64,000 nucleotides of DNA from Bacteroidales bacterium (GTDB lineage: Bacteria; Bacteroidota; Bacteroidia; Bacteroidales; UBA932). Where the stretch lies: the NCBI GenBank assembly GCA_017625535.1, contig JAGAKR010000021.1, positions 62,001 to 126,000 of the forward strand. Direction: 5' to 3'. Positions 43,326 to 61,658 of the stretch are shown here, in pieces (position 1 is the stretch's first letter; every line of letters begins with the position of its first letter). The notes under the pieces are model-generated. The model had not been told where the DNA came from and ran no database searches. It saw nothing but the letters and a program-made list of their open reading frames with translations. Made by a program: the position numbers and the translations under genes.

Positions 43326-43392
43326 AGCAACCAGATTTTTCCTCAATAACAATTTCCAATATGCATTGTTTAATGAATAGACGGAAAATACA

Positions 43393-44394: not shown

Positions 44395-44418
44395 TTTGGA
44401 CATTTGTACAAAGAATCC

Positions 44419-44426
44419 TAAATTTG
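44419..44426 (+). promoter_or_regulatory. -7 box close to the cutC start
   Basis: TAAATTTG with a TTG at 44396-44398 (20-base spacer). It is only four bases before the ATG at 44431, so if used, the transcript would have almost no leader. Confidence 0.35.
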
Positions 44427-44430
44427 GGAT

Positions 44431-45180: not shown

Positions 45181-45193
45181 GTGTGTCCATCAT

Positions 45194-45496
45194 TTACTCC
45201 CAATAATCGCACACTACCCTGCTCTCCCTGCATTTCTTGCAGAAATTGCTTATCTCCACGTGGGCAGGATATACTTTATAGGCAGCCAGATCCTCTTCGC
45301 TGCGGAACTTGCTTATGAGCACTGCATCATAGCTCATTTCAGTATGTTTGAAATCAATTCCAACCTCTGCAGAGACCAGTTGGGGAACAACGCCTACCAG
45401 GCCTTCAAGCCTCTGTTTCATCTGTTTGAGGTTTTCTTCTTTTGAGGCGCCTTCTGCAAAATCCTTGAAGCGCCACATAACTATGTGTACAAGCAT
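45194..45496 (-). CDS. Dabb (stress-responsive alpha-beta barrel) domain protein
   Basis: The 100-residue protein starts MLVHIVMWRFKD and has YDAVLISKFRSEEDLAAY and a final HVEISNF segment, typical of the dimeric ferredoxin-like Dabb fold. Substrate is unknown. It faces the M81 peptidase gene across a shared promoter region and converges on cutC. Confidence 0.85.
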   Translation of the reverse strand: MLVHIVMWRFKDFAEGASKEENLKQMKQRLEGLVGVVPQLVSAEVGIDFKHTEMSYDAVLISKFRSEEDLAAYKVYPAHVEISNFCKKCRESRVVCDYWE

Positions 45497-45515
45497 ATAA
45501 TTATAAATATTTTAA

Positions 45516-45538
45516 TATATTTGTTTTATACAAATATA
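45516..45538. promoter_or_regulatory. Face-to-face divergent -7 boxes
   Basis: The plus strand reads TATATTTG at 45516-45523 (toward the M81 gene), and the minus strand reads TATATTTG at 45531-45538 (toward the Dabb gene). The identical boxes point across each other, seven bases apart, so the two promoters should compete. Confidence 0.5.
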
Positions 45539-45544
45539 CACATT

Positions 45545-47089
45545 ATGAGGAACATTTTAGCCAAATCATTTCTATTGCCGCTAATGGTGGCCGTATTGTT
45601 TTCCTGCACACAGGAAAACAAGCTTCCCAAGATTGCAATTGCAGGAATAAAAATTGAATCCAGCACTTTCTCCCCTGCAAGGAGTACAGAGGAGTCGTTC
45701 AATGTTGCAATAGGGGATGAGATTTTTGATATGATCCCTTACCTTAACGAAGGGCAGCCACTGAGGGAGAGGGCTGAGTGGGTACCTGCTCTGGTTGCAC
45801 GAGCAACTCCGGGTGGTGCCGTAACAAGGGAGACATATGAGAAGTTTGTAAACATAATTTTGGATTCCCTCAAGGCAAACCTCCCTTTGGATGGCCTTGT
45901 GTATGATATCCATGGTGCAATGAGTGTTGTGGGACTTGATGATCCCGAGGGTGATATGATAAAGAGGATAAGGGAAGTTATAGGGAATGATGTGGTTGTA
46001 ACCACACCTATGGACCTCCACGGAAATGTATCCTGGACATTGGCAGAGAATTCTGATATGATCTGCTGTTACCGTATGGCTCCCCACGAGGATGCCTGGC
46101 AGACAAGGGAGAGGGCAGCCAGAATACTTATAGAGCGTCTGGAGAGCGGAAAAGGGAAACCGGAATTCAAAGCATATGTTCCGGTACCGATCCTGTTGCC
46201 GGGAGAGCAGACATCAACCCGTGTGGAACCTGCAAAATCGCTCTACGATCTTACATATCCCGAGCGTGAAGGGGTGATTGACGCTTCAATCTGGATAGGC
46301 TATGCCTGGGCTGATGAGCCGCGCAACCACGCAGTTGTAATGGCTACCGGAGATGACAGGGAGGCTGTTGTAAAAGCGGCAGAAGAGATTGCACAATACT
46401 TCTGGAGCGTACGCCACCAGTTTGATTTTGTGGCCCCTACAACTACTCTTGAGGAGTGTCTTGCAAATGCCCTTAAGAAGGATGCAAAAAGGCCTTACTA
46501 CATAAGTGATACAGGAGACAACCCAACAGCCGGAGGTGCAGGAGATGTAACCTGGACACTCACCCAACTGCTTGCACGCAAGGAATTCCGCAATGCAGAC
46601 GGGCCTGAACTCATATATGCTTCTCTTCCCGACAAAGATTTTGTGGCAAAAGCCAAGGAAGTTGGGATTGGCGGTAAAATTGATATGGTTGCTGGAGCGG
46701 AAGTTGATGACCGCTATGCACCCTCTGTGCGCCTGAAAGGTACCGTTACTGCAATATATGACCACCCTGTAAATTCAGAGGTGGCAGTAAAGGTGGGCAG
46801 CATTGATGTTATTGTAACGGAAATAAGGAAAGGATTCCACAAGGAGCACGAGTTTACAAAACTTGGACTCAATCCGCGCACTGCAGATATTGTTATGGTA
46901 AAAATAGGATATCTTGAACCTGAACTTTTCAATATGCAGGCAGACTGGATGATGGCCCTTACCCTTGGAGGCGTTAACCAGGATCTTGCAGGATTGCCAT
47001 ATCAGAGGATAAACCGTCCTATGTATCCTATAGACAAGGATATGCCTGATCCTGACCTTTCAGCCAAGATGGTTCCTTTTGTAGATTAA
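45545..47089 (+). CDS. M81 (MlrC-like) metallopeptidase lipoprotein
   Basis: The start is the ATG giving MRNILAKSFLLP; the longer frame begins upstream of the promoter. Of 514 residues, the first 18 or so form a lipoprotein signal (AVLFSCTQ). The MlrC N-domain shows KIAIAGIKIESSTFSP, TPMDLHGNVSW and MAPHEDAW with candidate zinc ligands; the C-domain has ISDTGDNPTAGGAGDVTW. MlrC cleaves linearised microcystin; family members here more likely hydrolyse other peptides or amides. A paralogue is at 57926-59506. Confidence 0.9.
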   Translation: MRNILAKSFLLPLMVAVLFSCTQENKLPKIAIAGIKIESSTFSPARSTEESFNVAIGDEIFDMIPYLNEGQPLRERAEWVPALVARATPGGAVTRETYEKFVNIILDSLKANLPLDGLVYDIHGAMSVVGLDDPEGDMIKRIREVIGNDVVVTTPMDLHGNVSWTLAENSDMICCYRMAPHEDAWQTRERAARILIERLESGKGKPEFKAYVPVPILLPGEQTSTRVEPAKSLYDLTYPEREGVIDASIWIGYAWADEPRNHAVVMATGDDREAVVKAAEEIAQYFWSVRHQFDFVAPTTTLEECLANALKKDAKRPYYISDTGDNPTAGGAGDVTWTLTQLLARKEFRNADGPELIYASLPDKDFVAKAKEVGIGGKIDMVAGAEVDDRYAPSVRLKGTVTAIYDHPVNSEVAVKVGSIDVIVTEIRKGFHKEHEFTKLGLNPRTADIVMVKIGYLEPELFNMQADWMMALTLGGVNQDLAGLPYQRINRPMYPIDKDMPDPDLSAKMVPFVD

Positions 47090-47110
47090 TTTTCAGGAAG
47101 TTGACATTAC

Positions 47111-47154
47111 AAGAAAACCGGATCAATTATATAAAAGATTGACCCGGTTTTCTT
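47111..47154. terminator. Bidirectional terminator
   Basis: AAGAAAACCGG-A-TCAAT pairs with ATTGA-C-CCGGTTTTCTT between the convergent M81 and oxidoreductase genes. Confidence 0.8.
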
Positions 47155-47157
47155 TTC

Positions 47158-48141
47158 TTACATTATGTCTGCAGGATACTCTACCCCAACCTGCCTACGT
47201 ATTTCATCCATTATTTCCAGGGTAATGATTGAGTTTTCAAAAGAATTGATTTCATGCTCAATCTGCTTTTTCTCAATCATATCCATAAAATCCCTTGCTT
47301 CATAAAAATAGTCGTTTCCACAATGGGCAGGAGAGACATCAATTGGATTTCCACCCCTTTGTCTCAGAGTAAGAGTTCTTGGTATATTGATCTTCTCCAT
47401 ATATAAAGTCCCCTCCTCACCCTGCACTTCTGTAGGCAAATAGGAATCCGCAACTTTGGAGTAAACCACCGTAGCCTCCATACCATTGCCATATTCAAAA
47501 ACAACTGTACCTTGTGCATCCACACCTGTTTCCAATTTTGTCCCCACCGCCTTTATTGAAACCGGCCTGCCAAACAAAACAACCATAGGATAAATCGTAT
47601 ATATCCCTATATCTACCAAAGCCCCGTTGGAAAGCTCTCTCTTGAAGGCATTCTCTATAATTCCACTCTTATACTTGTCGTATCTGCTTGAATATTGGCA
47701 ATAACTTGAAAAATACTTTCTTATCCTTCCAATTTGAGGAAGTCTCTCTCTAAGTTCAAGAAAATTTGGATTCAGCGTAGATATCATGGCCTCCATAAAT
47801 GGCACCCCATATTTCTTTGCCTGCTCAATAACCATCCGTCCCTCCCTGGCATTTGAGCACAGAGGTTTTTCACACAACACAGCTTTCCCGTTTCTTAGGA
47901 AAAAGAGAGATTGTTCTGCATGAATATAATTTGGAGTTGCAATATACACAGCATCAATATGCTCAAGCATCTGTTCAAAAGTGGTAAATACTTTTTCAAC
48001 ACCATATTTTGCAGCAAAAGCAGTCCCTTTCTCACGTGTTCTGGAATATACGCACGAAATAGTGAATCTCGGATCCATCTTTGCTCCTGCTATAAACCAG
48101 TCAGAGATATTGTTTGTACCTATTATTCCAAATCTTACCAT
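47158..48141 (-). CDS. Gfo/Idh/MocA family oxidoreductase
   Basis: The 327-residue NAD(P)-dependent oxidoreductase starts MVRFGIIGTNNISDWF with its Rossmann motif and has AVLCEKPLCSNAREG, carrying the conserved EKP. The C-terminal half is the substrate alpha/beta domain. Substrates of the family are sugars or cyclitols; the one here is unknown. Longer upstream reading passes through a strong hairpin and is rejected. It is the last gene of the SusCD-peptidase locus, and it uses many A/T-ending codons. Confidence 0.9.
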   Translation of the reverse strand: MVRFGIIGTNNISDWFIAGAKMDPRFTISCVYSRTREKGTAFAAKYGVEKVFTTFEQMLEHIDAVYIATPNYIHAEQSLFFLRNGKAVLCEKPLCSNAREGRMVIEQAKKYGVPFMEAMISTLNPNFLELRERLPQIGRIRKYFSSYCQYSSRYDKYKSGIIENAFKRELSNGALVDIGIYTIYPMVVLFGRPVSIKAVGTKLETGVDAQGTVVFEYGNGMEATVVYSKVADSYLPTEVQGEEGTLYMEKINIPRTLTLRQRGGNPIDVSPAHCGNDYFYEARDFMDMIEKKQIEHEINSFENSIITLEIMDEIRRQVGVEYPADIM

Positions 48142-48160
48142 ATTATCTGTTTTTAAAACA

Positions 48161-48205
48161 GAGGGTAACCCAAAAGGATAAATTCTTATCTTTTGAGTTA
48201 CCCTC
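48161..48205 (-). terminator. Strong hairpin between transglutaminase and oxidoreductase genes
   Basis: GAGGGTAAC pairs with GTTACCCTC, and CAAAAGGATAA with TTATC.TTTTG, giving about 20 stem pairs. A moderate T-run follows on the minus strand. It may terminate or attenuate transcription before the oxidoreductase. Confidence 0.7.
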
Positions 48206-48228
48206 ACCGTAACCTTTAACCTAAAATT

Positions 48229-51012
48229 TTATTTATGTATAGGCAGATTCAATTTTGAGATTGTCTCAGGCACACCTATGTTATAGCCCACAGACTGATA
48301 ATAAATATTCCCAAATGAATCTGCAACTACCACTACAGGTAATCTGGCCTGCAAATCTGTTGTTGCCAGTGATCTCTCCAATCCTTTAAGCACTACATTC
48401 TGTGAATCAAAACCATAGTTGATCTTGTCATTCAGGCCATAATTCTGTTTAAAGAAAAAGTCTGTTTTCTCTTTATCATTGAACATAATGAGGATTGGAA
48501 TTGCTATATCATCATCCTTGGATGTAAGTTCCCTTATAAAATGCTGGGAAGGCTCCTTTGTAGGCTCAATAAATGCCAATACGAAGAAATTCCTGCCAAC
48601 AGTATTAAGGATAGATGTCACTTCATCTGATGGATTGCTGTCCTTATCAGAATACCTCCATTCAGCATCCATACTTCCTATTACAACCAGCTCATCCTTC
48701 TCTACAGGATACCATTCAACTGTAATATCGGTTGTAGTATTAGGCTCTACAGTAAAAGTCATCGTCCTTGCCAACATAGAGCCGTCAGCAGCACGTATAC
48801 TTGTGAGAATCCTATAGTATCCCGGTTCTACATTCATTACGGAAACATCGGAATCACCTTGTCTCTGAGTGCCTCTACCCATGCCAAAACCACCTGCAAA
48901 TCCATAAGAATCACCTTGCCACTTCTGCAACAGATATCTTCTGCCGGCAGCTTTGCCCTCAGGGTCACTGATTCTCAAAACTGCATTTGCTTCACTTTGG
49001 GAAGCAGGCAAAGGTTTGGATATCTTCAAAGGGAAAATCTCCCATTTTCCTACCGACAAATACTGGATTTCCTGAGTCTGGTTATTCATTCTTGCCGGAA
49101 TACCTGCCGTATTGAACAAAGCCCTTGCATACACAACATAATTACGGCTGTCCGCCATTCCGAATTCAGCTATTGAAGCTGGCGTCATATAGAAATTCCT
49201 TGGATTGAACCTGGAGTCATCAACAATTACCACCTTATCCAAAGCCTTGTTTATGGCATCCAATGTCTGTACGTTTGCACCCGGCTCACTCATGCCGCAC
49301 GCAACCAGCTCATTCCATAGCTTCTCCTTGAATGCAACCGGCAACTCATTTGAAAATCTAGGGTTCAGTACAGTCTGCACAAACATAGGATTATCAGCAT
49401 CATATACACTGCCCAGTTTGAGCACGCCATTGAGATAATCCTGGAATCCGGCAGTAGTAATCTCCTGTATATCCTTAACTCTAATCACCTTCAACAGTTG
49501 TACTGCAAGATTGAGGTTGGAGCCATCCACTGAAAGCAGGAAATTCTCTACATTCTCACCACCGCTGAGTGTCTGCATCATCAGATTTGTCAAATCCTTC
49601 TCAAACTTACTGCTCATACCTTTGTCAACCATACTCTTGCTGAATGCCGAAGCTTTCTCCTCAGAATTGAATTTGAAGGTTGCAGTATGTGCCAATCTGA
49701 TGGAATCATCTTCAGCACACTTGGCATCATGCTCTTTCTGCATCTCCTCACTGAGCGCCTTAGGGAATCTGGTTTCGGCAGGAGGGGTAACCCTGTAATC
49801 TGCAATCGCAAACTTATCCTTTCCATTACCTTTTCTCTGATCTCCATCCAATACTACAACAAGTTCATCTGTATCTGGAACTCTAAGCTCCTCAGCTTTG
49901 TAGAACTCATTGCCATTGGCATCTTTGAAATACACCTCAATTATAAAGGTTCCTAATCCAGTTGTAAGGTAAGCAATACCCTTTTCATCTGTAATTCTCT
50001 CAACCATAGGGCTTAAAGAATTACCATTAATGATATTGAATGAAACGGCTGCCCCCTCAACAGGTTTGCTGCCGGTATCCACAACTTTAACAACAGCTTT
50101 CTTCACCGGTGCATACGTTGCAGTACTGCTTATTTCAGTAAACAGATCGCTCTGAGAAATAATCTCTCCCTTTATTTGGGTATCTTCAGACGGCACCACA
50201 GGACCATAAGCATAAGTATTCACCAACATAGCTCTGGATGCAGACGCGGTAAACCAGCCTCTATCCAAAAGTGGTTCAGGCTCACATGCCCCTAAATAGT
50301 ACCATGTTCCATCAACCCATACTTCAACCCATGCATGATTTGAATTGGTATGTGCCCAACGCGGAACATAAACCTGACGGGCCGGAATACCCATACTCCT
50401 CAAAGCTGCGACAGCCACAGTAGACTCCTCACCACATCTTCCATATGCCCTCAGTGCAGTTTGGGCAGGAGGGGTTGTCCTTCCGTCTGTAGGTGTGTAG
50501 ACAATTTTCTCCCTACACCAGTGATTTATCTCAATCACTGCATCATACATGGACAAATCCTTAACTCTTGGATACAGTTCATTGTAGAAGATCTCACGTG
50601 CATTGTCCAATGTCTCATTATTCACCCTTGGAGGAAGTACAAAATGTCTGAACAAATCATCACTGACACTTTCACCCCAAGGCATATCCTTTGTCTTGTG
50701 CGCATAACGGACAATATTCACAAAGTACTCAAATGAGTTCTCTGCCATATCATTCACCGGCATATATGCATACAAGAACTTGAGACTCTCAATTTCGTCG
50801 GAAGTAAGATTATACTTATTTGTTCTTCCTGACAGTTCATTCTGCAGTTCCTCCGCCAATGCAAACGCTCCAGATAATGGCTCCCCACCTTTGAGCACCT
50901 CAATCTTATTATCCAAATCTGATTGTACCTGAACTGTATAATCCGAACCTCCTGTACATGCCGACAACATCAGCAACAATACAGGAAATATCCACAAAAA
51001 TCTATTCTTCAT
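48229..51012 (-). CDS. Transglutaminase-like lipoprotein, multidomain
   Basis: The 927-residue protein has a lipoprotein signal (LMLSACTGG, Cys19). The transglutaminase-like core (about 155-260) has Cys193 in GRCGEEST and His226 in NHAWVEV; the third position is near GACEPE, where most relatives have Asp-Pro. A carboxypeptidase-regulatory beta domain (about 300-390), a second Tgase-like stretch without the cysteine (about 640-690, ARALFNTAGIPARM), and a thioredoxin-like C-terminal domain without CxxC follow. It could cut or rearrange amide bonds at the cell surface. It follows the peptidase gene by four bases. Confidence 0.85.
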   Translation of the reverse strand: MKNRFLWIFPVLLLMLSACTGGSDYTVQVQSDLDNKIEVLKGGEPLSGAFALAEELQNELSGRTNKYNLTSDEIESLKFLYAYMPVNDMAENSFEYFVNIVRYAHKTKDMPWGESVSDDLFRHFVLPPRVNNETLDNAREIFYNELYPRVKDLSMYDAVIEINHWCREKIVYTPTDGRTTPPAQTALRAYGRCGEESTVAVAALRSMGIPARQVYVPRWAHTNSNHAWVEVWVDGTWYYLGACEPEPLLDRGWFTASASRAMLVNTYAYGPVVPSEDTQIKGEIISQSDLFTEISSTATYAPVKKAVVKVVDTGSKPVEGAAVSFNIINGNSLSPMVERITDEKGIAYLTTGLGTFIIEVYFKDANGNEFYKAEELRVPDTDELVVVLDGDQRKGNGKDKFAIADYRVTPPAETRFPKALSEEMQKEHDAKCAEDDSIRLAHTATFKFNSEEKASAFSKSMVDKGMSSKFEKDLTNLMMQTLSGGENVENFLLSVDGSNLNLAVQLLKVIRVKDIQEITTAGFQDYLNGVLKLGSVYDADNPMFVQTVLNPRFSNELPVAFKEKLWNELVACGMSEPGANVQTLDAINKALDKVVIVDDSRFNPRNFYMTPASIAEFGMADSRNYVVYARALFNTAGIPARMNNQTQEIQYLSVGKWEIFPLKISKPLPASQSEANAVLRISDPEGKAAGRRYLLQKWQGDSYGFAGGFGMGRGTQRQGDSDVSVMNVEPGYYRILTSIRAADGSMLARTMTFTVEPNTTTDITVEWYPVEKDELVVIGSMDAEWRYSDKDSNPSDEVTSILNTVGRNFFVLAFIEPTKEPSQHFIRELTSKDDDIAIPILIMFNDKEKTDFFFKQNYGLNDKINYGFDSQNVVLKGLERSLATTDLQARLPVVVVADSFGNIYYQSVGYNIGVPETISKLNLPIHK

Positions 51013-51016
51013 AATA

Positions 51017-52522
51017 CTAATCTATATCCAAAACTATTGTATAAGTATTATTAGGACGTAACCTGTTACCATATATTAAGATAAAGTTCTCATCCAAAGC
51101 CACTTTCCAGCGCTGCCCTTCTGCAAGTCTAGGATTGTTCAACCTCTCCTTAAAGAAATGACTGAATGGGATATCCAATACGTGAACCTGCTTGAACCTG
51201 TCACCGGCTATCTTATCCGGACTGAAATATACGCCAGTCTTAATGGTAATTGTACACTTCTTGCCCTCAATCTTTGTATCTACAGTAAAATCATTCTCCT
51301 CCTCTATTGTATCAAGTCTCACATTCCATTTAGGGTCACCATAGAAAGCCACAACATCCCTGTCGTGCCAGAAACCGAGCTGATCCATTGTAGGCTTACC
51401 TTTTATCTCTTTCTCTATCCTGGCCATTGCATTCTTGCGTCCTTCTCTCTCCCCATGAGGATATGGTTCGTCAACAAGAGCAGGATACCACTCATTCATC
51501 TGATACAGCATATCCTGTACATTCATGTAGAATGCCTCTGCAACAGTATATCTGCCCGGAGTTGTTACAAGATATTTCAATCCGCCCCAACCATTTCTTC
51601 CATGCCATGTAGTTACAACATATCCAACATAAGTTGCGACATTGGCACTGTTCATCCATGCTATTGCCATACTGTTCTTTGTACTGTCTATATTACCTAT
51701 CAGACAATTGCCTATAGGCAAATATACTCTCCTCTTTCCAGACTCCACCAAGAACTTGTCTCCCTCAGGGAATTGTGCATACAATTTACCCTCTTTTGCC
51801 CTGATAAATCCGGCAGAAAAAGGCATCTCCAATGCTGTTTCCGAACCATGCGATGCTGTAATCACAACATCGGGGTCAATTTTTGCATAAGCATCGTAGA
51901 ACAAAGGGAGCAGGTTAGGCACCTTGCCGTCTCTACGGAATCTGGTTGCCTCTATCTGCTGAGGATTAAGCGAATATTTGGTTGTCTTGTTTTCCCACGG
52001 CATCTTGTAACCATAAATTCCCTTATTCTGATCATCCATATAGAAGTAAGAATCAAACCACTTTCCATCATCTGTCTCCATTATGGTAGAGACACAGCTC
52101 TTCATCAAAAGAGGCTCTGTACTGTTCTTAACCATTCGCATGGCATTCTCATGATCATAGCCGGTAATTATACCCCACAAGAAATCTGCATAAATATCAT
52201 CATCTATGGTTCTTGAGAACAGATTCAAATCTATAATGTACTGTCTGAAGAGGTTTTCGGGTTTTTCAACTATACCTACATACCTCGGATTATATTTCTG
52301 AATCTCTTTCAACAGTTCATTCGGGTGGTTCTTGTAATATATTACAGGAGCATCCCCGTGTTTCCTGGAAAGTTCAAGGGCTACCTTGTTCCAGAGTGTA
52401 TCCTGCTGCACAGAAGTTCCGGCAATTACCAGATACTCATTGGCTTTCGCTTCCTGTGCATAAGAAAGCCGGCTGCAGCATATAGCTGCAGCTAGCAATA
52501 TGAATAATTTAAATTTTCTCAT
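51017..52522 (-). CDS. Secreted clan CD (caspase/gingipain-like) peptidase candidate
   Basis: The 501-residue protein has a signal peptide (about 1-22, ending SYAQ). A caspase-like dyad is suggested by a hydrophobic strand ending in His-Gly (VVITASHGSE, His about 225) and another ending in Cys (VYLPIGNCLIG, Cys about 273), the order found in clan CD. A C-terminal beta domain follows. No named family is certain. The ATG overlaps the susD stop (TAATG), implying coupling; an ATG two codons earlier is also possible. Confidence 0.7.
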   Translation of the reverse strand: MRKFKLFILLAAAICCSRLSYAQEAKANEYLVIAGTSVQQDTLWNKVALELSRKHGDAPVIYYKNHPNELLKEIQKYNPRYVGIVEKPENLFRQYIIDLNLFSRTIDDDIYADFLWGIITGYDHENAMRMVKNSTEPLLMKSCVSTIMETDDGKWFDSYFYMDDQNKGIYGYKMPWENKTTKYSLNPQQIEATRFRRDGKVPNLLPLFYDAYAKIDPDVVITASHGSETALEMPFSAGFIRAKEGKLYAQFPEGDKFLVESGKRRVYLPIGNCLIGNIDSTKNSMAIAWMNSANVATYVGYVVTTWHGRNGWGGLKYLVTTPGRYTVAEAFYMNVQDMLYQMNEWYPALVDEPYPHGEREGRKNAMARIEKEIKGKPTMDQLGFWHDRDVVAFYGDPKWNVRLDTIEEENDFTVDTKIEGKKCTITIKTGVYFSPDKIAGDRFKQVHVLDIPFSHFFKERLNNPRLAEGQRWKVALDENFILIYGNRLRPNNTYTIVLDID

Positions 52523-54279
52523 TACCATCCAGCATTTTGAGTAAGATCAATACCTTTGTCTTTGTACAGTATTATCTCATCCTGAGGAATTGGATCCAGA
52601 TAATATTTATCCTCAAACTTTCTTGAATACTGAGAATGTGTATTAATATAATTATCTGCATTCAGGTTCTTCTCATAACCTGCAGGAGCCTTCTCCATCC
52701 AGGCACCCAACATTACATCAGGATTAAGCTCTGTATCCATATACTCACCTTTTGCCCAACGGTCAATATCAAGATGTCTCAAATACACCCAACCTAAAAG
52801 CTCAGCTCTTCTTTCTCTTCTGATTTCCCAAAGGATAGGAGACACTATACCTCCTTTAGTTGCAGACTCCAATGAAGAAGTTCTCTTTGGATCATTAATC
52901 TCAACTCCGCTTGCCATAGCACCATCTGTACCGGAAAGTTCCAATTTAGCCACACCTGCCCTTTCCCTGAGTTTGTTTATGGTATTGTCCAAATCTGTCT
53001 GGGTAAGTGTTCCCAACTCAGCTTTGGCCTCTGCCAAAATCAAATATATCTCAGAAATTGTGTATATAGGTGCATCAGTATGGTTTCTGTTCTCTGTTGT
53101 TACATCAGGATGTTTCTTATCTACTGCAGGATTATCATAGAATGATGATACATAACCTGTAGAAGAAACAAGGATGTCATAAATTGGCTGTCCGTAGTAA
53201 CCTATCTCATCAAATATCATATCCACAAGTCTGATATCCCTATTGGCCTTTACGTTGGCAATACCTTTGTCACCCATGTACAAAGGGGACTGTGAAATTG
53301 GAAGACCATCTGAACATACGAAACTCTCCACAGTATATTTGGTAGGTCCGCAAATCTCAGGAGCCGAACAGTGGGTATGAGCCTGAAGATAGTGGCACAT
53401 AATATTTGGCTCGTAACGTTTGTAAAGTATCATTTCAGGATTACCTGCCAAATCATCAGATATCCATTTTGATTTATAGTTATCTGCAAGGCTGAATTTA
53501 CCGCTTGAGATCAATGCCTCTGCAGCGGTTACCGCCTGCTGGAGGTAAGTATTATAATCACCCAGAGAATGATACTTTCTGAAAGTTCCCTCAAACAAAG
53601 CCACACGGGCCAAAAGTGCGTACGCACTATACTTGTTGATAGCATCAGCTCCGTCACTTGCTTTCATTGATGTTGCAGCCTCATTGAGGTCCTTAATAAT
53701 CTGATCCGCTACAGTCTTCCTGTCAGATCTAGGAAGATAAATTTCCTCCGCTGCATCAGGGCTTGTATACGACAAAGGCATAGGAACACCACCCCAAGAG
53801 CTCAACAATGAAAAATAGTTCATGGCACGGAAAAATTTACCAACTCCAAGCCAATGGTTTCTTGCATCTTCTGTAAGGCTTTCCATCTCTGAAACCCTTG
53901 TTATCATAAGATTTGCCCTTCTGATATTGCTATAATAAGACTCCCACATACTATTAGAAGTATACACTCCAGAAGGGAAACCCAAGAATGTGTAATGCAG
54001 CAAATCCTCAGAGAACTTCATTTCATAACTGTTGTTCCCAAGAGTCTGCCAATAGAACTCTCCATATGTACCACGTCCGTAGCCGTAGAACATATTATAG
54101 AAGTTCCATGAGAATGCTCTCACATTTGCTTCAGATGTCCAGTAATTGTTATCTGTAAAATCTGTCAATGGCGGTTTTGTCAGAAAATCGCTGCAACTGG
54201 TAGCAACTATAGAGACAAACAGCAGAGCAAAAACCGCCTTCCTTATTGTATTGTTTATAATTGTTTTCATAATCTGCAT
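52522..54279 (-). CDS. SusD-like nutrient-binding lipoprotein
   Basis: The 585-residue protein has a lipoprotein signal (IVATSCSDF), the SusD N-terminal TPR region with LTDFTDNNYWTSEANVRAF, and the RagB/SusD C-terminal motif with LAEAKAELG and RRERRAELLGWVYLRHLDI. SusD proteins cap the SusC barrel and capture ligands at the surface. It follows susC by 41 bases. The ATG three codons in (MKTIINNT) is a possible start. Confidence 0.96.
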   Translation of the reverse strand: MQIMKTIINNTIRKAVFALLFVSIVATSCSDFLTKPPLTDFTDNNYWTSEANVRAFSWNFYNMFYGYGRGTYGEFYWQTLGNNSYEMKFSEDLLHYTFLGFPSGVYTSNSMWESYYSNIRRANLMITRVSEMESLTEDARNHWLGVGKFFRAMNYFSLLSSWGGVPMPLSYTSPDAAEEIYLPRSDRKTVADQIIKDLNEAATSMKASDGADAINKYSAYALLARVALFEGTFRKYHSLGDYNTYLQQAVTAAEALISSGKFSLADNYKSKWISDDLAGNPEMILYKRYEPNIMCHYLQAHTHCSAPEICGPTKYTVESFVCSDGLPISQSPLYMGDKGIANVKANRDIRLVDMIFDEIGYYGQPIYDILVSSTGYVSSFYDNPAVDKKHPDVTTENRNHTDAPIYTISEIYLILAEAKAELGTLTQTDLDNTINKLRERAGVAKLELSGTDGAMASGVEINDPKRTSSLESATKGGIVSPILWEIRRERRAELLGWVYLRHLDIDRWAKGEYMDTELNPDVMLGAWMEKAPAGYEKNLNADNYINTHSQYSRKFEDKYYLDPIPQDEIILYKDKGIDLTQNAGW

Positions 54280-54320
54280 CTAATTAAATTAAAATCTTCA
54301 GTAAGCTCATATAATACAGC

Positions 54321-57300
54321 CTAGAAAGTAGCCTGCACGCCAAATGACAATGTCCTGAGTAATGGGAAACTCCTACCGAGCATATGCTCTGTCTGTGTAA
54401 CCTCAGGGTCCACTGGGAGATGCTTGTCCTTGAATGTAAGCAAGTTCTCACCGCTGAAGTATACCCTTATCCTTTCCACATTAATCTTGCTTGTAACCTT
54501 CTTAGGAATAGTATATCCTACAGTTAAGTTCTTCAACCTCAAATATGCCATATTAATGAGATATCTTGTCTGTGTAATGGAGTTGTTTGAGCCATATACT
54601 CCTGTTAGAGCTGTACTTCCTGAATATCTCCACAAACGAGGGTAATATGCATCTGTATTTTTTGGTGTCCAATAATCATCCTGATGAGCATACAGCAAAT
54701 CATAATAACCACGCTGGAACGGCATAAACACGTCAGAACTTGTTCCTGCAATATCTCTTCTGCCTACACCCTGGAAGAACAGATTTACATCAAATCCGTA
54801 GAAATTTCCTCCCAATCTGAAATTATACTCATATCTTGGTCTGCTATATCCAATAATACTCAAATCTCCATGATCCTCCTTGGTTCCTTTACCACCTGTA
54901 ATTTTGCCGTCACCATCAAGATCTTTGTACAATACATCTCCTGCACCAAATTTAAATGTTGATTTAACCAATAGGGACTGGTCTGGAAGAGAAGGATTCA
55001 ATTGTCCGTTTACTATATCTGATTCCTGAATCAGCCTGTCTGTTGTAAGACCCCAAATCTCGCCAACTGTCATACCCTCATACATCGAACCAAGCACGCC
55101 TGCACTATTCCACTTGGTAACTACAGATTTTGAGTCAGAAAATCCTACACTCGCATTTACAGAAATATTCTCATTGATAACCTTGTTGAATGACAAGTCT
55201 ATCTCATAACCCCTTGTCCTGAGGTCTCCGGCATTTGTAAGAGGAGCATCTGCACCAAATACTTCAGGAAGAGCCTCTCCAGCTGCCAACATACCACTGG
55301 TATTCCTCTGGTACCAGTCTGCAGTAATATTTATCATTCTCCACAAGCCAACATCAATACCAACATCAAATGTGGTTACTTTCTCCCATGTAAGTGATTC
55401 ACTTGTTGTAGAAGGGAGTCCGTAAGAAGTATTTCTAACTGAAGAACCGTTGCCCAACCAGTAAGCCTGAGAACTTGACATAATAGGCTCAAATGCATTA
55501 TCCCTGATTCTCTGGTTACCTATAGTACCTGCAGAAGCACGGAGTTTAAGGTTGTTCAACACTTTCTTCGCACTCTTCATGAAAGGCTCCTCTGACACTC
55601 TCCATCCTATTGATCCTGATGGAAATACACCCCACTGAGAATGGGTAGGGAACTTAGATGAGCCATCATATCTCAAATTGAACTCAACCAAATATTTGCC
55701 TTTATAATCATAATTCAATCTTCCAAACACACCTGCAATTGAATATTCAGTATGGGCAGGTCTGAAAGAACCCGATGTAGAAACCGAGTACTCAGTACCT
55801 GTAGCCAATACAAACTCCGGTTTTGTAGGGTCCAACAAATTTCTTCTTTCACTGTATGTCCTCTTGAATGTCTCCCACTCTGTATTTATACCAACTTGTG
55901 CAGTAACATTATGGACATCCTTAAATTTCTTGTTGAACCTTGCATATGCATTGAATACGTTAGTTGTCTCATTTGAATTTACAACCCTTACGGCATCATA
56001 GGCACTTCCTACAGACTGAATGGCAGTTGGTGTTCCGTTAGGATCCACCATGGCACCCTGATATCTCCACAAATTCAATATTCCACCATTCATAGTCCAG
56101 TTCATATATTGCTGACCTACACTATACTCGGCGTTAAGAGTAATCTCCTTTGTAACCTGGGCCTTCAACCCCAATGAAAGTCTGAGATAATCTGTCCTTC
56201 TCAGGTTTGTATTTGCCTCCCTCAACATAATTGCAGGGAAACCAAATGATATACCCTTATATGTTCCATAAGGTGCATAAGCTCCATATCTATAAATGTG
56301 TCCGAAGTATCCATTGTTACCACCACCTGAGAATCCGCCGGATGCATTATAGTTGAACGGCTCCTGATAATCCTGACGTGAAGCCATCATTCTGATATCA
56401 GCTGTAAGCCATTTTGAAAGCTTGGTATTGATATTTATTGAAGCATTGTACCTCTGCATCTCCTCAGGATTCATTTTCATCAAACCTTTTCTGTAATTGT
56501 ATCCGAGTGAGGCCATAAGGCTGGTGTTATTTCCAATCTTACCGTTTACATTAAACGAATGGTTTGTTGTAGGGGCTGCGTTATCATACATAAGTTTGTT
56601 TACATCCCATACTCTATAGAAATAGGTGGTACCATTTACATTCTCCCAGTCCTCTCCATAAACCATCTCAAGATCGTTCCACTTTCTCTTGCTTGCATAA
56701 TTGTCATACCACTTCTGCACACCTTTGATTGTTACAGTATGGTAAGCTCCCCAAGACTCCGACACATCTCCTCTTGCCGCCGCAGTTTCAATGATCGCAT
56801 TAAGTTCCTTCAAAGGTTCCATATGCTCCAGATACTCTGTACCGCGGCTGAATCCCATGCTTCCTGTATAACTGAATTTAAGCTTGTCAAACTTTTCACC
56901 CTTCTTGGTAGTTATGAGAACAACTCCAAATGCTGCACGGGCACCATATATTGATGCTGAAGCAGCATCCTTAAGCACCGATATACTCTCAACATCATCC
57001 GGATTCACAAATTCAAGACTTGTAGGAATTCCATCCACAAGAACAAGCGGGCTACCACTTGCAGCTCCATCAATAATTGTACCTGTACCACGCACATTAA
57101 TTGTAGGGGCACCACCCAACTGACCTGAAGAATACATAATCGTAAGACCCGGGCTCACACCCTGCAATCCCTGGTTCAAGTCTGTGATAGGACGTGTTTC
57201 CATATCCTTGGTATCAACAGTAGCCACCGCGCCGGTAAGATTCGCTTTTGTCTGTGTACCAAATCCTACTACAACAACATCATCCAACATTTCCGAATCT

Positions 57301-57608
57301 TCCTGCATCACAACATTTATGACTGTTCTGCCATTAACGGGTATTGACTGCGATTTATACCCCACATAAGTGTATTCCAGGATTGCATTTGCAGGAACCT
57401 CAATAGAATACTTTCCTTCAATATCTGTTGTAGCTCCGTTATTGGTATTTTTAACAAAGACATAAGCCCCTATAATAGGGCCATATTGGTCTGAAACCGT
57501 ACCTGTTACAACTATCGACTGTGCACTTGCCTGAATGGCAAATAACATTGTAACCAACAGAAAAGCAAACCTTTTCACTTTCCTGCCAAAAAAGTTTTGA
57601 TAATACAT
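54321..57608 (-). CDS. SusC/RagA-type TonB-dependent transporter
   Basis: The 1095-residue outer-membrane transporter has a signal peptide (about 1-29), a carboxypeptidase-regulatory domain (about 34-105, VTGTVSDQYGPIIGAYVFV), a TonB-box-like DDVVVVGFG, a plug domain with VRGTGTI and YGARAAFGVVLITTKKG, and a 22-strand-type barrel ending in Phe. It imports oligomers bound by SusD. There is no sigma/anti-sigma pair or hybrid sensor beside it, so regulation is not apparent. Confidence 0.97.
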   Translation of the reverse strand: MYYQNFFGRKVKRFAFLLVTMLFAIQASAQSIVVTGTVSDQYGPIIGAYVFVKNTNNGATTDIEGKYSIEVPANAILEYTYVGYKSQSIPVNGRTVINVVMQEDSEMLDDVVVVGFGTQTKANLTGAVATVDTKDMETRPITDLNQGLQGVSPGLTIMYSSGQLGGAPTINVRGTGTIIDGAASGSPLVLVDGIPTSLEFVNPDDVESISVLKDAASASIYGARAAFGVVLITTKKGEKFDKLKFSYTGSMGFSRGTEYLEHMEPLKELNAIIETAAARGDVSESWGAYHTVTIKGVQKWYDNYASKRKWNDLEMVYGEDWENVNGTTYFYRVWDVNKLMYDNAAPTTNHSFNVNGKIGNNTSLMASLGYNYRKGLMKMNPEEMQRYNASININTKLSKWLTADIRMMASRQDYQEPFNYNASGGFSGGGNNGYFGHIYRYGAYAPYGTYKGISFGFPAIMLREANTNLRRTDYLRLSLGLKAQVTKEITLNAEYSVGQQYMNWTMNGGILNLWRYQGAMVDPNGTPTAIQSVGSAYDAVRVVNSNETTNVFNAYARFNKKFKDVHNVTAQVGINTEWETFKRTYSERRNLLDPTKPEFVLATGTEYSVSTSGSFRPAHTEYSIAGVFGRLNYDYKGKYLVEFNLRYDGSSKFPTHSQWGVFPSGSIGWRVSEEPFMKSAKKVLNNLKLRASAGTIGNQRIRDNAFEPIMSSSQAYWLGNGSSVRNTSYGLPSTTSESLTWEKVTTFDVGIDVGLWRMINITADWYQRNTSGMLAAGEALPEVFGADAPLTNAGDLRTRGYEIDLSFNKVINENISVNASVGFSDSKSVVTKWNSAGVLGSMYEGMTVGEIWGLTTDRLIQESDIVNGQLNPSLPDQSLLVKSTFKFGAGDVLYKDLDGDGKITGGKGTKEDHGDLSIIGYSRPRYEYNFRLGGNFYGFDVNLFFQGVGRRDIAGTSSDVFMPFQRGYYDLLYAHQDDYWTPKNTDAYYPRLWRYSGSTALTGVYGSNNSITQTRYLINMAYLRLKNLTVGYTIPKKVTSKINVERIRVYFSGENLLTFKDKHLPVDPEVTQTEHMLGRSFPLLRTLSFGVQATF

Positions 57609-57925
57609 AGCGTATAGTTTTAAGTTAATATGAGGTAATTATCTTCTAATATCAACATGAGCTATATAGCTAAGGGGGTATTGTAAAAATAATAAAGATT
57701 TCCCTATTTTCAGCCCCATTCTCCAATAATTCATTATATTTATCCCATAAACACTAAAATTTATTCCCTTTTTACCATTTTTTACAACCATTTTGTTACA
57801 AAAAAGAATAAATCACTACGAATTCTCTTATTTTCTATAGAATAGACAAAAAGAAATAAGGCTTAAACTAATACTTCTATTTTATAACAAACTTGTATAA
57901 TTATTCACTTTAAATATCACCTCTT
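57609..57925. promoter_or_regulatory. A+T-rich divergent intergenic region, susC and M81
   Basis: About 317 bases, very A+T-rich, between the divergent susC and M81 genes. A short palindrome (AGCTATATAGCT, 57660-57671) lies near susC. I see no perfect TAnnTTTG box for either gene and no ORF. It probably holds both promoters and regulator sites. Confidence 0.45.
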
Positions 57926-59506
57926 ATGAAAAAGTTATTATTTACCCTTTTAATCAGTGCTATCTCAGCTATTTGCTGTCATAATGCTTCTGCTCAAGAG
58001 AAAACAAAACCTCGTATAGGTATTGCAGGAATTCAAATTGAGAATAGTGTCTTTATTCCTAACAGACAAGAAATGATCGCCAGAGACCTTAGGCTCCCGG
58101 ATTATTTACACGGTGATTCTCTTTTAGGAAAAGCTGCAGAATGGTTTCCAACTTATATTGGTGGAGGTAGTGGAAGAGGCCCTGTTACAAAAGAATCTTA
58201 TGATGCATTTGTAGAGAAAACTATTAAAAAAATTGAAGAAAATATGCCATATGATGCATTTTGGTTTTATATGCATGGAGCGTGCAGCGTAGAAGGAGTG
58301 GAAGACCCTGAGGGATACTTTATGGAGAAAGTACGTAGAGTTATTGGCAACGATTGTCTTACAACAACAACCATGGACCTTCATGGCAATCCTTCACTCA
58401 AGGTTGCCCTCTACTCAGATTTAATAACCACATTCCGCATGGCGCCTCACGATGATTCAAAGATTTCTCATCGTAGAGGTGTTGAAAACCTTATAGAGCG
58501 TATAGAATCAGGAAAAGGTCGTCCGGCATATAAAGCATGGGTAGCTGTTCCTATCCTCGTTTCTGGAGAGTGGTCAAGTACACGAGTTGAACCGGCCAAA
58601 TCACTTTACGCTATGGTACCTGAGGTAGAGGCCATGCCTGGAGTTGTGGATGCAGGTATCTGGATTGCATATGCATGGGGAGATGATGTTCGCAACCAAG
58701 GTGTTGTAATGGTGTATGGAGATGACAAGGATAATGTTATTACAGGTGCAAAGATGCTTGCTCAAAAATATTGGGATGTACGCAAGGAGTTCACCCTTGA
58801 GGCGCCAGGATATGAACTTGACAAATGTCTTGATTTAGCTATTGCCAGCGATAAGAAACCTTTCTTTATAAGTGATACAGGTGACAATCCTGGCGGTGGT
58901 GGATCCGGTGAGGTAACCTGGACACTGGAACGTTTGTTAAAACGACCAGAGTTCAAGGATCCTAATGCCAAGAAACTTCTTTACTGCTCTATTCCTGGAG
59001 AAGAACTTGTTAACAAAGCACGTAAAGCCGGTGTAGGTAAAACAGTAAAAGGTTATGTAGGTGCCATGACAGATAAAACATTTGGAAATCCTGTTTTACT
59101 GGAAGGAGAAGTTATCTATGTCAGCCCAGATCCTAAAAAGGATATTGCATCATCGTCACAAGATTCACAAAGAAGAAGATTCCGAAGTAATATTGCAATT
59201 ATCAGGACCGGAAGCATATATATTGTAGTAGGAACATCTTCACCTACACCTCCACTTAAAGATACAGGTATTGAACCTAAAGAGATGGATATTGTGATGG
59301 TTAAACAAGGTTATCTTGTACCTCAATGGTATAATATAAAAGCAGATTGGGTTATGGCTTTGACAAGAGGCGGAGTAGACCAAGATCTTGCAAAGATTCC
59401 ATACAAACGTGTCATGAGACCTATATTCCCTGTAGATTATGATATGCCTGATCCGGAATTGAATGTTATTCTGGTTCCATCTGCCAAATATGTTTTTGGA
59501 AGATAA
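57926..59506 (+). CDS. M81 (MlrC-like) metallopeptidase, second paralogue
   Basis: The 526-residue protein has a signal peptide (about 1-23, ending NASAQ). It parallels the gene at 45545: RIGIAGIQIENSVFIP, TTMDLHGNPS, MAPHDDSK and ISDTGDNPGGGGSGEVTW. The two differ at the N-terminus (secreted versus lipoprotein) and in a basic insert near SQRRRFRSN. Codon choice is more A/T-ending (many CAA, AAA, TTA) than in the first paralogue, hinting at separate origin. Divergent from susC. Confidence 0.9.
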   Translation: MKKLLFTLLISAISAICCHNASAQEKTKPRIGIAGIQIENSVFIPNRQEMIARDLRLPDYLHGDSLLGKAAEWFPTYIGGGSGRGPVTKESYDAFVEKTIKKIEENMPYDAFWFYMHGACSVEGVEDPEGYFMEKVRRVIGNDCLTTTTMDLHGNPSLKVALYSDLITTFRMAPHDDSKISHRRGVENLIERIESGKGRPAYKAWVAVPILVSGEWSSTRVEPAKSLYAMVPEVEAMPGVVDAGIWIAYAWGDDVRNQGVVMVYGDDKDNVITGAKMLAQKYWDVRKEFTLEAPGYELDKCLDLAIASDKKPFFISDTGDNPGGGGSGEVTWTLERLLKRPEFKDPNAKKLLYCSIPGEELVNKARKAGVGKTVKGYVGAMTDKTFGNPVLLEGEVIYVSPDPKKDIASSSQDSQRRRFRSNIAIIRTGSIYIVVGTSSPTPPLKDTGIEPKEMDIVMVKQGYLVPQWYNIKADWVMALTRGGVDQDLAKIPYKRVMRPIFPVDYDMPDPELNVILVPSAKYVFGR

Positions 59507-59513
59507 AATATGT

Positions 59514-59538
59514 AAAAGGGGCCCTAAAGGCCCCTTTT
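59514..59538. terminator. Bidirectional terminator, M81 and ettA
   Basis: AAAAGGGGCC pairs with GGCCCCTTTT around CTAAA, two bases from the ettA stop. T-runs follow on both strands. Confidence 0.8.
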
Positions 59539-59540
59539 CT

Positions 59541-61217
59541 TTACTCCATAAGTTTCTTGTACTTGAATTTTTTAGGCTCCACATTTCCAAGCCTCATCTT
59601 CTTGTTCTCCTCATACTCAGAATAGGTACCCTCATAGAAATACACTTTTGAATCACCTTCAAAGGCAAGGATGTGGGTACATATACGGTCAAGGAACCAG
59701 CGGTCGTGGGAAATTACAACAGCACAGCCCGCAAAGTTCTCCAAGCCCTCCTCCAGAGCACGGATAGTGTTCACATCCACATCATTGGTAGGCTCATCCA
59801 ACAAAAGCACATTGGCACCCTCCTTAAGGGTGAGGGCCAGATGCAGACGGTTCCTCTCACCGCCGCTCAACACTCCGCATTTCTTCTCCTGGTCTGCACC
59901 GCTGAAGTTGAAACGCGACACATAAGCCCTGGCATTCACCTCCTTGTTGCCCAGTTTCACGTACTCAGAATTCTCTGCAATTGTCTCATATACGGTTTTA
60001 TCGGGGTCTATGCTCTTGTGCTGCTGGTCTATATAGGCAACCTTCACAGTCTCGCCCACCTTGAACTCACCTTTGTTTGGAGAATCATATCCCATAATGA
60101 GACGGAACAGTGTTGTTTTTCCTGCACCGTTAGGTCCAATCACACCCACAATGCCTGCAGGCGGCAACTTGAAGTTCAGCCCCTCATACAACACTTTGTC
60201 TCCAAAGGCTTTGGTAACATCAATCGCCTCTATTACGTTTGTACCAAGACGAGGTCCGTTAGGTATGAAAATCTCCAGTTTCTCCTCTTTCTGTTTTCCA
60301 TCCTCATTCAACATCTTCTCATATGCGCCCAAACGTGCCTTTGATTTTGCGTGGCGGGCCTTAGGAGCCATCCTTACCCACTCAAGTTCCCTCTCAAGAG
60401 TCTTGCGGCGTTTGCTTTCCTGCTTCTCCTCCATCTTCAGACGGTTCGATTTCTGGTCCAGCCAAGAAGAGTAGTTTCCTTTCCAAGGAATTCCCTCACC
60501 CCTGTCAAGTTCAAGAATCCATCCGGCAACATTATCAAGAAAGTAACGGTCGTGGGTTACCGCAATTACGGTACCCTTATACTGCTGCAGGTGTGCCTCA
60601 AGCCACTGGATACTCTCTGTGTCAAGGTGGTTGGTAGGCTCATCCAGGAGAAGCACATCAGGCTCCTGCAGAAGAAGCCTGCACAATGCAACCCTTCTCC
60701 TCTCACCGCCGCTCAAGTTTTTCACCAAAGCATCAGGCTCGGGACACATAAGGGCATCCATTGCCCTCTCCAGTTTGGAATCAATCTCCCATCCCCCCAT
60801 CTGCTCTATCTTCTCTGTAAGTTCACCTTGTCTCTCTATAAGTTTGGCCATCTGGTCATCATCCATAGGCTCCATAAACTTGGCGTTTATCTCTTCATAC
60901 TCCTTAAGGACATCAACAACCTCCTGCACACCCTCTTCAACCACTTCCTTTACGGTCTTGCTGTCATCCAATTGAGGTTCCTGCTCCAGATAGCCTACAG
61001 AATATCCAGGAGCCCAGACAACCTCTCCCTGGTAAGATTTCTCTATACCTGCAATAATCTTCATCAGGGTTGATTTACCGGAACCGTTCAGACCTATGAT
61101 TCCTATCTTTGCCCCATAGAAGAAAGAAAGGTAAATGTCCTTTAGAATTGTCTTGTTGCTGGCAGGCAAAACCTTGCCTACGCCATTCATTGAGAAAATA
61201 ATCTTTTCGTCTGCCAT
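59541..61217 (-). CDS. ettA: Energy-dependent translational throttle protein EttA-type ABC-F
   Basis: The ATG at 61217 gives MADEKIIFSMNGVGK and a 558-residue protein, the normal EttA length. Two ABC domains are seen: GLNGSGKST, LSGGERRRVALCRLL, LLLDEPTNHLD, and GPNGAGKTT, LSGGERNRLHLAL, LLLDEPTNDVD. The short arm region and the P-site linker (RELEWVRMAPKARHAKSKAR) are typical. EttA gates ribosomes by ADP/ATP. The reading frame continues upstream without a stop into an AraC-type domain, which I treat as a separate remnant. A TATATTTG box lies 20 bases upstream. Confidence 0.93.
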   Translation of the reverse strand: MADEKIIFSMNGVGKVLPASNKTILKDIYLSFFYGAKIGIIGLNGSGKSTLMKIIAGIEKSYQGEVVWAPGYSVGYLEQEPQLDDSKTVKEVVEEGVQEVVDVLKEYEEINAKFMEPMDDDQMAKLIERQGELTEKIEQMGGWEIDSKLERAMDALMCPEPDALVKNLSGGERRRVALCRLLLQEPDVLLLDEPTNHLDTESIQWLEAHLQQYKGTVIAVTHDRYFLDNVAGWILELDRGEGIPWKGNYSSWLDQKSNRLKMEEKQESKRRKTLERELEWVRMAPKARHAKSKARLGAYEKMLNEDGKQKEEKLEIFIPNGPRLGTNVIEAIDVTKAFGDKVLYEGLNFKLPPAGIVGVIGPNGAGKTTLFRLIMGYDSPNKGEFKVGETVKVAYIDQQHKSIDPDKTVYETIAENSEYVKLGNKEVNARAYVSRFNFSGADQEKKCGVLSGGERNRLHLALTLKEGANVLLLDEPTNDVDVNTIRALEEGLENFAGCAVVISHDRWFLDRICTHILAFEGDSKVYFYEGTYSEYEENKKMRLGNVEPKKFKYKKLME

Positions 61218-61658
61218 ATCACTGAATAAATTTAGGCAAATATACTTCTTTTTAAGCAAATTGCATCGCCCGTTCCCCGCTTCCATAACAGACTTGTAAA
61301 AAGCCTTTTCTGAGTGGAATCCGCACTCCTCCACCAGAGTATGCACATCATAGTCCCCGCTGTCTGCCAACTCCGATGCATAATTGAGCCTCAGGGTGTT
61401 TATATAAACCAGAAAAGGGACTTTCTTCTTCTGGTTGAACACCCTTGAAAGATATGTCCTGTTTGTCCCCACCTCAGTGGCGAGTGAATCAAGCGTAAGA
61501 TCTTTGTCAAGATAGAGTTTCCTGGCATACATTGCCGCATCCACCTTGTATGAAATCTCCTCAAGGCGGTCAAGGAACCGTTGCTGTTCAACAATGCACT
61601 CACACCCATAATCCATTTGGGAAAGTGTGCTGTCATACTCAAGCCCCATAACAGTCAT
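61218..61658 (-). pseudogene. AraC-type DNA-binding domain, no stop, runs into ettA
   Basis: From an ATG at 61658 (MTVMGLEYD) about 147 residues precede the ettA ATG in the same frame. They contain a good AraC helix-turn-helix: LTLDSLATEVGTNRTYLSRV, then ECGFHSEKAFYKSV. The usual end of the second HTH is replaced by GNGRCNLLKKKYICLNLF, which overlaps the ettA promoter region. The gene has no stop of its own. Either it is a truncated regulator or, less likely, a real fusion with EttA. The frame is open upstream to 61727, overlapping the intact AraC gene. Confidence 0.6.
61237..61244 (-). promoter_or_regulatory. -7 box for ettA
   Basis: The minus strand reads TATATTTG 20 bases before the ettA ATG, inside the last codons of the AraC-like remnant. 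It supports independent expression of ettA. Confidence 0.5.

What the first reader, a model, noticed from the sequence alone, without database searches (positions are those of the whole stretch)
45545..59506. SusCD locus with peptidases and no glycosidases, flanked by two M81 paralogues
SusC, SusD, a clan CD-like peptidase, a transglutaminase-like lipoprotein and an oxidoreductase, bracketed by MlrC-like metallopeptidases. This points to import and breakdown of a peptide, cyclic peptide or other amide polymer, a locus type little described.
Basis: partly seen in the sequence, partly recalled or inferred. Interest (0 to 1): 0.75.

Follow-up and report, generated by a model that had tools for sequence, protein, structure and literature searches.

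The report
Acquired SusCD operon for peptide import
A bacterium, probably of the Bacteroidota, appears to have gained a six-gene cluster that probably takes up and trims small peptides, perhaps from bacterial cell walls, rather than sugars; the kind of machinery is known, but this gene combination and one of its enzyme families seem undescribed.

Summary
New here: the block GFO-TGL-CD-SusD-SusC-M81B (47158-59506) looks laterally acquired. Its genes have 39.0-42.5% G+C against 46.3 +/- 2.2% in 34 other window ORFs; five same-genus genomes have M81-A near the HTH-EttA gene without the block, two of them in the window's orientation. M81-A is thus a resident gene and M81-B came separately: 44% identical, different tree branches. 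The SusC/SusD pair is sister to one near an Xaa-Pro aminopeptidase; the next kin lie in peptidoglycan-salvage clusters. This favours peptides or cell-wall peptides, unproven. Against: kin of M81-B, and one M81-CD pair, sit beside glycosidases; none of 24 SusCD-kin regions holds CD, TGL, M81 or GFO; the full set recurs in 0 of 15 other CD loci.

The parts
45545..47089 (+). M81-A, MlrC-like metallopeptidase, probable lipoprotein (Cys21, by eye); resident gene, not part of the acquired block
   Evidence: PF07364/PF07171; 89-92% identical orthologues near HTH-EttA in 5 same-genus genomes without the block; immediately next to CutC in 3 of these 5
47113..47152 (.). inverted repeat between the convergent stops of M81-A and the oxidoreductase, probable shared terminator and left border of the block
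   Evidence: read by eye from sequence
47158..48207 (-). Gfo/Idh/MocA oxidoreductase, no export signal seen (start perhaps at MVRFGIIG)
   Evidence: PF01408, PF22725; PDB relatives 4iq0, 2ho5 and dimeric dihydrodiol dehydrogenase; in 0 of 38 other same-genus genomes at E<=1e-30
48229..51012 (-). TGL, 927-aa probable lipoprotein with transglutaminase-core domain; Cys193 and His226 invariant, LGACEPEP motif
   Evidence: weak PDB hit to peptide N-glycanase 2f4m, E=0.084
51017..52528 (-). CD, 503-aa probably exported orphan protein with invariant His226 and Cys274, putative clan-CD-like cysteine peptidase
52522..54279 (-). SusD-like surface lipoprotein
   Evidence: PF07980, PF14322; trees
54321..57608 (-). 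SusC-like TonB-dependent transporter
   Evidence: TIGR04056; trees
57609..57925 (.). divergent intergenic region between SusC and M81-B; only loose matches to a Bacteroidetes promoter consensus (consensus recalled)
57926..59506 (+). M81-B, MlrC-like metallopeptidase with probable signal peptide (by eye), part of the acquired block
   Evidence: PF07364/PF07171; zinc ligands conserved; sister of the M81 of L156, 100/100
47158..59506 (.). whole low-G+C block between M81-A and HTH-EttA
   Evidence: 40.6% G+C against 46.9% for window 30000-47000; gene by gene; block-free arrangements in L108-L112

Best explanation
A laterally acquired import locus for peptides or another short amide substrate. SusD and SusC (shown by family) form the outer-membrane lid and channel. 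CD and the lipoprotein TGL, from the same operon-like array, would cut or trim amide bonds at the surface or in the periplasm (inferred from motifs and apparent export signals), and the divergently placed exported M81-B would hydrolyse imported oligopeptides in the periplasm (inferred from MlrC and conserved zinc ligands). The oxidoreductase would act on a product in the cytoplasm (the weakest step). The source of the peptides is open: SusCD kinship points about equally to protein-derived peptides (aminopeptidase neighbours of the nearest kin) and to peptidoglycan-derived ones (salvage-cluster neighbours of the next kin); I lean slightly to cell wall because MlrC, the studied M81 enzyme, acts on linearised microcystin and its tetrapeptide, which are rich in D- and gamma-linked residues (that chemistry recalled). 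The block landed beside a resident M81 gene, so the two M81 genes have separate origins. The figure below covers both peptide sources and overlaps with the first rival.
For: Families and spacing. Foreign composition: block genes 39.0-42.5% G+C against mean 46.3, sd 2.2, range 41.2-49.9 in 34 other ORFs. Block-free M81-A/HTH-EttA neighbourhoods in 5 of 5 same-genus M81 genomes, 2 of them (G022, G009) convergent with a gap of about 70 nt as in the window; CD in 0 of 36 and GFO in 0 of 38 other same-genus genomes. M81-A and M81-B 44% identical, different branches. SusC and SusD group with G002 (100/100; 100/98), then with G706 and G707 (100/100; 99/99). Aminopeptidase P (M24 plus AMP_N) is in 5 of 11 other same-family SusCD-kin neighbourhoods read, G002 among them, and in 1 of 50 control regions. 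NamZ is near the SusCD pair in 4 of 10 non-genus genomes read (G706, G707, G298, G290), and a fifth (G777) has the kinase and the golvesin protein; none of these in 50 control regions. G707 also has MurQ. CD recurs with SusCD and TGL in L005, with SusCD in L101, with M81 in L009. E38, D157, H159, H181 of M81-A are conserved in M81-B, matching MlrC E39, D167, H169, H191 (passages of PMC9982164, which once prints H196).
Against: No activity, expression or ligand data. None of the 24 SusCD-kin regions read holds TGL, CD, M81 or GFO, and none of the CD or M81 regions holds peptidoglycan-salvage genes, so kin of the transporter and kin of the enzymes are not linked elsewhere. M81-B's nearest kin is near a glycosidase PUL, and the M81-CD pair of L009 is followed by a GH43 protein. 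Two SusCD relatives lie beside GH9 genes (L194, L195). Block G+C overlaps the low tail of native ORFs (one at 41.2%). In 3 of the 5 block-free genomes M81-A is inverted relative to HTH-EttA (in G007 a 333-aa ORF lies between), so the site is rearranged. The 50 controls are CD, M81 and same-genus regions, not random SusCD loci.
Confidence: 0.5

Rival explanations
1. Strictly protein-derived oligopeptide importer, RagAB-like: CD, TGL and M81-B are general peptidases and cell wall is not involved.
For: Nearest SusCD kin (G002) and four other same-family SusCD neighbourhoods hold an aminopeptidase P gene; RagAB takes up peptides (passages of PMC11817032).
Against: The next SusCD kin out lie in peptidoglycan-salvage clusters; no ligand evidence; aminopeptidase P is near 5 of 11, not all, and absent from the window.
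Confidence: 0.3
2. A glycan or glycoconjugate locus whose glycan-cleaving enzymes are unrecognised or elsewhere; the peptidases strip the protein part and the oxidoreductase works on a released sugar.
For: M81-B's sister gene is near a propeller/AraC regulator, SusCD, GH97, GH43, GH28 and arabinofuranosidase genes; the M81-CD pair of L009 is followed by a GH43 protein; two SusCD relatives lie by GH9 genes; Gfo/Idh/MocA enzymes often act on sugars and polyols (recalled; PDB names).
Against: No CAZyme family among the ten proteins of 44431-62829; the L156 SusCD pair is only about 25-30% identical and distant in the trees.
Confidence: 0.15
3. No common function: unrelated genes gathered beside M81-A.
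For: Whole set found once; CD is often without these partners (L007, L008, L096-L099) and TGL usually stands apart from them.
Against: Small gaps in one direction, uniformly low G+C, and recurrence of CD with SusCD, TGL or M81 in other loci.
Confidence: 0.05

Closest known systems
CAZyme-free susCD loci with peptidases (PULDB survey, PMC6499787)
   Same: Adjacent susC-susD pair, peptidase genes, no CAZyme
   Different: The passages read give classes only; M81, the orphan CD family and a TGL lipoprotein together are not mentioned in them
RagAB of Porphyromonas gingivalis; BT2263/BT2264 of B. thetaiotaomicron
   Same: SusCD-type transporters reported to take up or hold peptides (passages of PMC11817032)
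   Different: Not compared by sequence here; in the window putative peptidases are encoded in the same array
Peptidoglycan-recycling cluster of Tannerella forsythia (PMC7670621 passages) and salvage clusters of G706/G707
   Same: SusC/SusD of G706/G707 are 44-51% identical kin of the window pair
   Different: None of the salvage genes tested is in the window; the genome has three NamZ genes and an AmpG-like gene elsewhere
MlrC, microcystinase C (peptidase family M81; PDB 7ylq)
   Same: Domain pair and four zinc ligands
   Different: Far below NCBIfam's cut-off for MlrC itself (108.5 and 84.4 of 999 bits); apparent export signals and SusCD context
Gingipain family C25 (clan CD)
   Same: His-Gly and Asn-Cys sites in hydrophobic context (clan motif recalled); several remote kin carry T9SS tails, as gingipains do (recalled)
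   Different: No profile similarity to 11 C25 domains

Membership tests
Canonical polysaccharide utilisation locus | adjacent susC-susD pair | tested here: met
Canonical polysaccharide utilisation locus | linked CAZyme gene | tested here: not met
   no CAZyme family among ten proteins of 44431-62829
Peptide-importing SusCD (RagAB-like) | peptide bound or transported | not testable with these tools
   needs ligand binding or structure
Peptidoglycan-salvage cluster | NamZ, AmpG, MurQ or MurK in the cluster | tested here: not met
   no match in the window at E<=1e-10
Peptidoglycan-salvage cluster | SusC/SusD related to those of such clusters | tested here: met
   four-row clade with G002, G706 and G707, 100/100 and 99/99; the nearest row, G002, is not in such a cluster
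Peptidase family M81 | DUF1485 and MlrC_C domains | tested here: met
   both proteins
Peptidase family M81 | zinc ligands Glu, Asp, His, His | tested here: met
   E38, D157, H159, H181 invariant in 6 proteins; Asp and both His line up with MlrC, the Glu assigned by position
Peptidase family M81 | amide hydrolysis | not testable with these tools
   needs assay
Clan CD cysteine peptidase | His then Cys in conserved hydrophobic blocks (motif recalled) | tested here: met
   H226 and C274 invariant in 14 full-length members and in L102, L103, L105; not aligned in L106, L107
Clan CD cysteine peptidase | profile or fold similarity to a known member | tested here: inconclusive
   no profile hit; fold prediction switched off
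Transglutaminase-like superfamily | PF01841 domain with Cys and His | tested here: met
   C193 and H226 invariant in 5 proteins
Transglutaminase-like superfamily | third catalytic acid | tested here: inconclusive
   the usual Asp region (recalled) reads LGACEPEP in all 5

The most novel reading that the evidence does not exclude
A dedicated outer-membrane uptake locus for peptidoglycan stem peptides: SusCD kin of cell-wall-salvage transporters now serve a peptide branch, with an M81 enzyme cleaving bonds next to D-isoglutamate (as MlrC is recalled to do beside Adda), an undescribed clan-CD-like cysteine-peptidase family, and a transglutaminase-fold lipoprotein with faint likeness to peptide N-glycanase.
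Probability: 0.2. Interest if true: 0.72.

Novelty: new variant of a known kind. Interest (0 to 1): 0.42.

Why it matters
If right, it would show a SusCD system turned to peptide foraging by gene-cluster acquisition, suggest a role for M81 enzymes beyond microcystin, and point to an unnamed putative cysteine-peptidase family for structural work. It also corrects a tempting reading: the two flanking M81 genes have different origins.

Tried and rejected
Rejected: in-place duplication of M81 (44% identity, separate branches, different G+C). Rejected: peptidoglycan salvage as the only SusCD context. The first trees put the window pair next to G706/G707; a later genus search found a closer pair in G002, near an aminopeptidase P gene, and the trees were rebuilt. 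Rejected: C25 membership of CD by profile. Led nowhere: PDB profile searches with A1, A4 and A5 (A4 found only the T9SS tail); plasmid searches (CD none, GFO only short matches in Priestia plasmids); viral scan with M81-B (none); border repeats (none telling); strict Bacteroidetes promoter in 57609-57925 (none). Paper searches for NamZ with SusC, SusCD with muropeptide, M81 with SusD, SusD with N-acetylmuramic acid, and mlrD with peptidoglycan listed nothing that I judged directly relevant; the library lacks most subscription papers.

Limits and rows left out: searches scored at most three candidates per genome, so their lists may be incomplete. The frameshifted CD of L011 and the cut CD of L100 were not aligned. 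G561 and G622 (of 12 non-own genomes) and G730 were not fetched. L005, L156 and L190_own_b were left out of the trees as long branches, and L225 was not entered. I also corrected the description of the five block-free genomes and of the control set.
Full report
Observation. SusC, SusD, CD, TGL and GFO run in one direction with gaps of 41, -7, 4 and 21 nt. M81-B is divergent from SusC across 317 nt; M81-A faces the end of GFO. No Pfam or NCBIfam CAZyme is among the ten proteins scanned from 44431-62829. CD has no family or PDB sequence relative.

An acquired block. Of 36 other same-genus genomes, 5 have an M81 gene. In all five the M81-A orthologue (89-92% identical) is near the HTH-EttA gene with no block between. 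In G022 and G009 the two genes are convergent with a gap of about 70 nt, as the window would be without the block. In G006, G024 and G007 M81-A is inverted relative to HTH-EttA, with a gap of roughly 400-500 nt in the first two (starts) and a 333-aa ORF between in G007. CutC is immediately next to M81-A in G024, G007 and G009, a few kb away in G022, and off the contig in G006. In the window the block 47158-59506 lies between M81-A and HTH-EttA. Its six genes have 39.0-42.5% G+C; 34 other ORFs of the window have mean 46.3, sd 2.2, range 41.2-49.9. CD is absent from 36 of 36 other same-genus genomes and GFO from 38 of 38 at E<=1e-30. Loss in the relatives is not strictly excluded, but composition argues for gain. 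No telling border repeats were seen. Why the block landed beside a resident M81 gene is unexplained.

Two different M81 genes. M81-A and M81-B are 44% identical. In a 19-row tree M81-A groups with the two same-genus orthologues entered (99/100) and M81-B with the M81 of L156 (100/100), 70% identical. Both keep the four zinc ligands reported for MlrC (passages of PMC9982164; Asp and both His by the alignment, Glu by position). L156 carries near its M81 a propeller/AraC regulator and SusCD and, further on, GH97, GH28, GH43 and arabinofuranosidase genes. Of 30 M81 regions read outside the genus (29, L113; 4 to 19.5 kb each), only this one shows both SusC and SusD by BLAST to the window proteins; L113 ends inside a SusC-like gene, and L144 and L167 have partial SusC-like matches.

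The CD family. One scan of genome contigs (84,980 species by its description) gave 8 loci. A profile search of 393 order genomes, own included, matched 24, with 7 further full-length or nearly full-length places. The full-length members aligned are 46-63% identical to the window protein and keep His226 and Cys274. Of 5 remote kin scanned (582-949 aa), 4 carry a T9SS sorting domain above cut-off and one below it. Comparison with 11 C25 domains found nothing. So 'clan CD-like' is a motif-level claim. Of the 15 other CD loci, 2 lie in SusCD arrays (L005; L101, whose SusD is confirmed by Pfam), 3 have TGL within the fetched flank (adjacent only in L005), 1 has M81 next door (L009), and none has the whole set. 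Two contigs (L095, L100) are too short to judge and L011 is frameshifted.

The SusC/SusD lineage. Searches of 384 order genomes (at most three candidates per genome scored) and 39 genus genomes gave relatives; neighbourhoods of 10 non-genus genomes, 9 genus genomes and the own genome were read. In 23-row trees the window pair is sister to G002 (same genus; SusC 56%, SusD 53%) with support 100/100 and 100/98, and these join G706 and G707 with 100/100 and 99/99. G002's pair follows an aminopeptidase P gene and a histidine kinase. Aminopeptidase P (M24 plus AMP_N) was found in 5 of the 11 other same-family genomes read (G731, G651, G002, G007, G009), in none of the other SusCD-kin regions, and in 1 of 50 control regions (L145). 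The G706 and G707 pairs lie beside peptidoglycan-salvage genes: NamZ, SpoIID, DUF4922, an AmpG-like MFS (below NCBIfam's cut-off in G707), and in G707 MurQ (well above cut-off), a NagK-like kinase (far below cut-off) and a Golvesin protein with a weak Amidase_3 match. Over the 10 non-genus genomes, NamZ is near the SusCD pair in 4 (G706, G707, G298, G290); G777 has the kinase and the golvesin protein; G501 only the metallophosphatase; the rest nothing. The same gene set was found in 0 of 50 control regions: 14 around CD, 30 around M81 outside the genus, 6 same-genus, and in 0 of 10 same-genus SusCD-kin regions. The controls are not random SusCD loci. No SusCD-kin region (0 of 24) holds TGL, CD, M81 or GFO, and two lie by GH9 genes. 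T. forsythia has a published nine-gene peptidoglycan-recycling unit with AmpG, MurT, MurK and MurQ (passage of PMC7670621).

Mechanism, with grades. Shown: gene content, operon-like spacing, foreign composition, kinship of SusCD. Inferred: co-transcription; that CD and TGL hydrolyse amide bonds outside the cell or in the periplasm; that M81-B works on peptides in the periplasm; that the substrate is peptidic. I hold about 0.5 for a peptide or cell-wall-peptide importer, the cell-wall version (0.2) being a little under half of that. Rivals are a strictly protein-peptide importer and a glycan or glycoconjugate locus; the latter is kept alive by the glycosidases beside kin of M81-B, CD and SusCD.

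Known context. 52% of surveyed susCD loci lack CAZymes, and 11% of those have sulfatases and peptidases (passage of PMC6499787); RagAB takes up peptides (passages of PMC11817032). So the kind is known; this gene set is a new variant, and CD is an unnamed family in the libraries searched. MlrC is reported to act on linearised microcystin and its tetrapeptide, releasing Adda (passages of PMC9982164). That microcystin-degrading genes might derive from peptidoglycan cycling, and the D-residue content of microcystin, are recalled and come from no call (one search listed no paper).

Noticed in passing
59541-61727 (-); also L108-L112: EttA is in one open frame with an N-terminal AraC-type HTH region of about 170 residues; the frame (728-733 aa) is kept in 6 of 6 same-genus genomes read, own included. 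The linker codons may hide a promoter, so the fusion may be apparent only.
   Followed up: partly
L013, L014, L020, L024-L027, L030, L031, L036; also L006, L011: TGL homologues are often next to a CutC gene: 10 of the 29 TGL loci (27 genomes, short flanks). In the window CutC is near M81-A instead.
   Followed up: partly
L190-L191 (own genome, contig C29): The genome carries several SusCD pairs in a row, one of them a resident relative (SusD 43%) of the window pair.
   Followed up: partly
L059-L071: A second family of about 620-aa proteins with an NGACH motif, T9SS-tailed in the two scanned, matches the first 130 or so residues of CD; no Pfam catalytic family in those two.
   Followed up: partly
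L202, L203, L204 (own genome): Three NamZ genes, one in an AmpG-like/SpoIID/GT2 cluster near a contig end.
   Followed up: no
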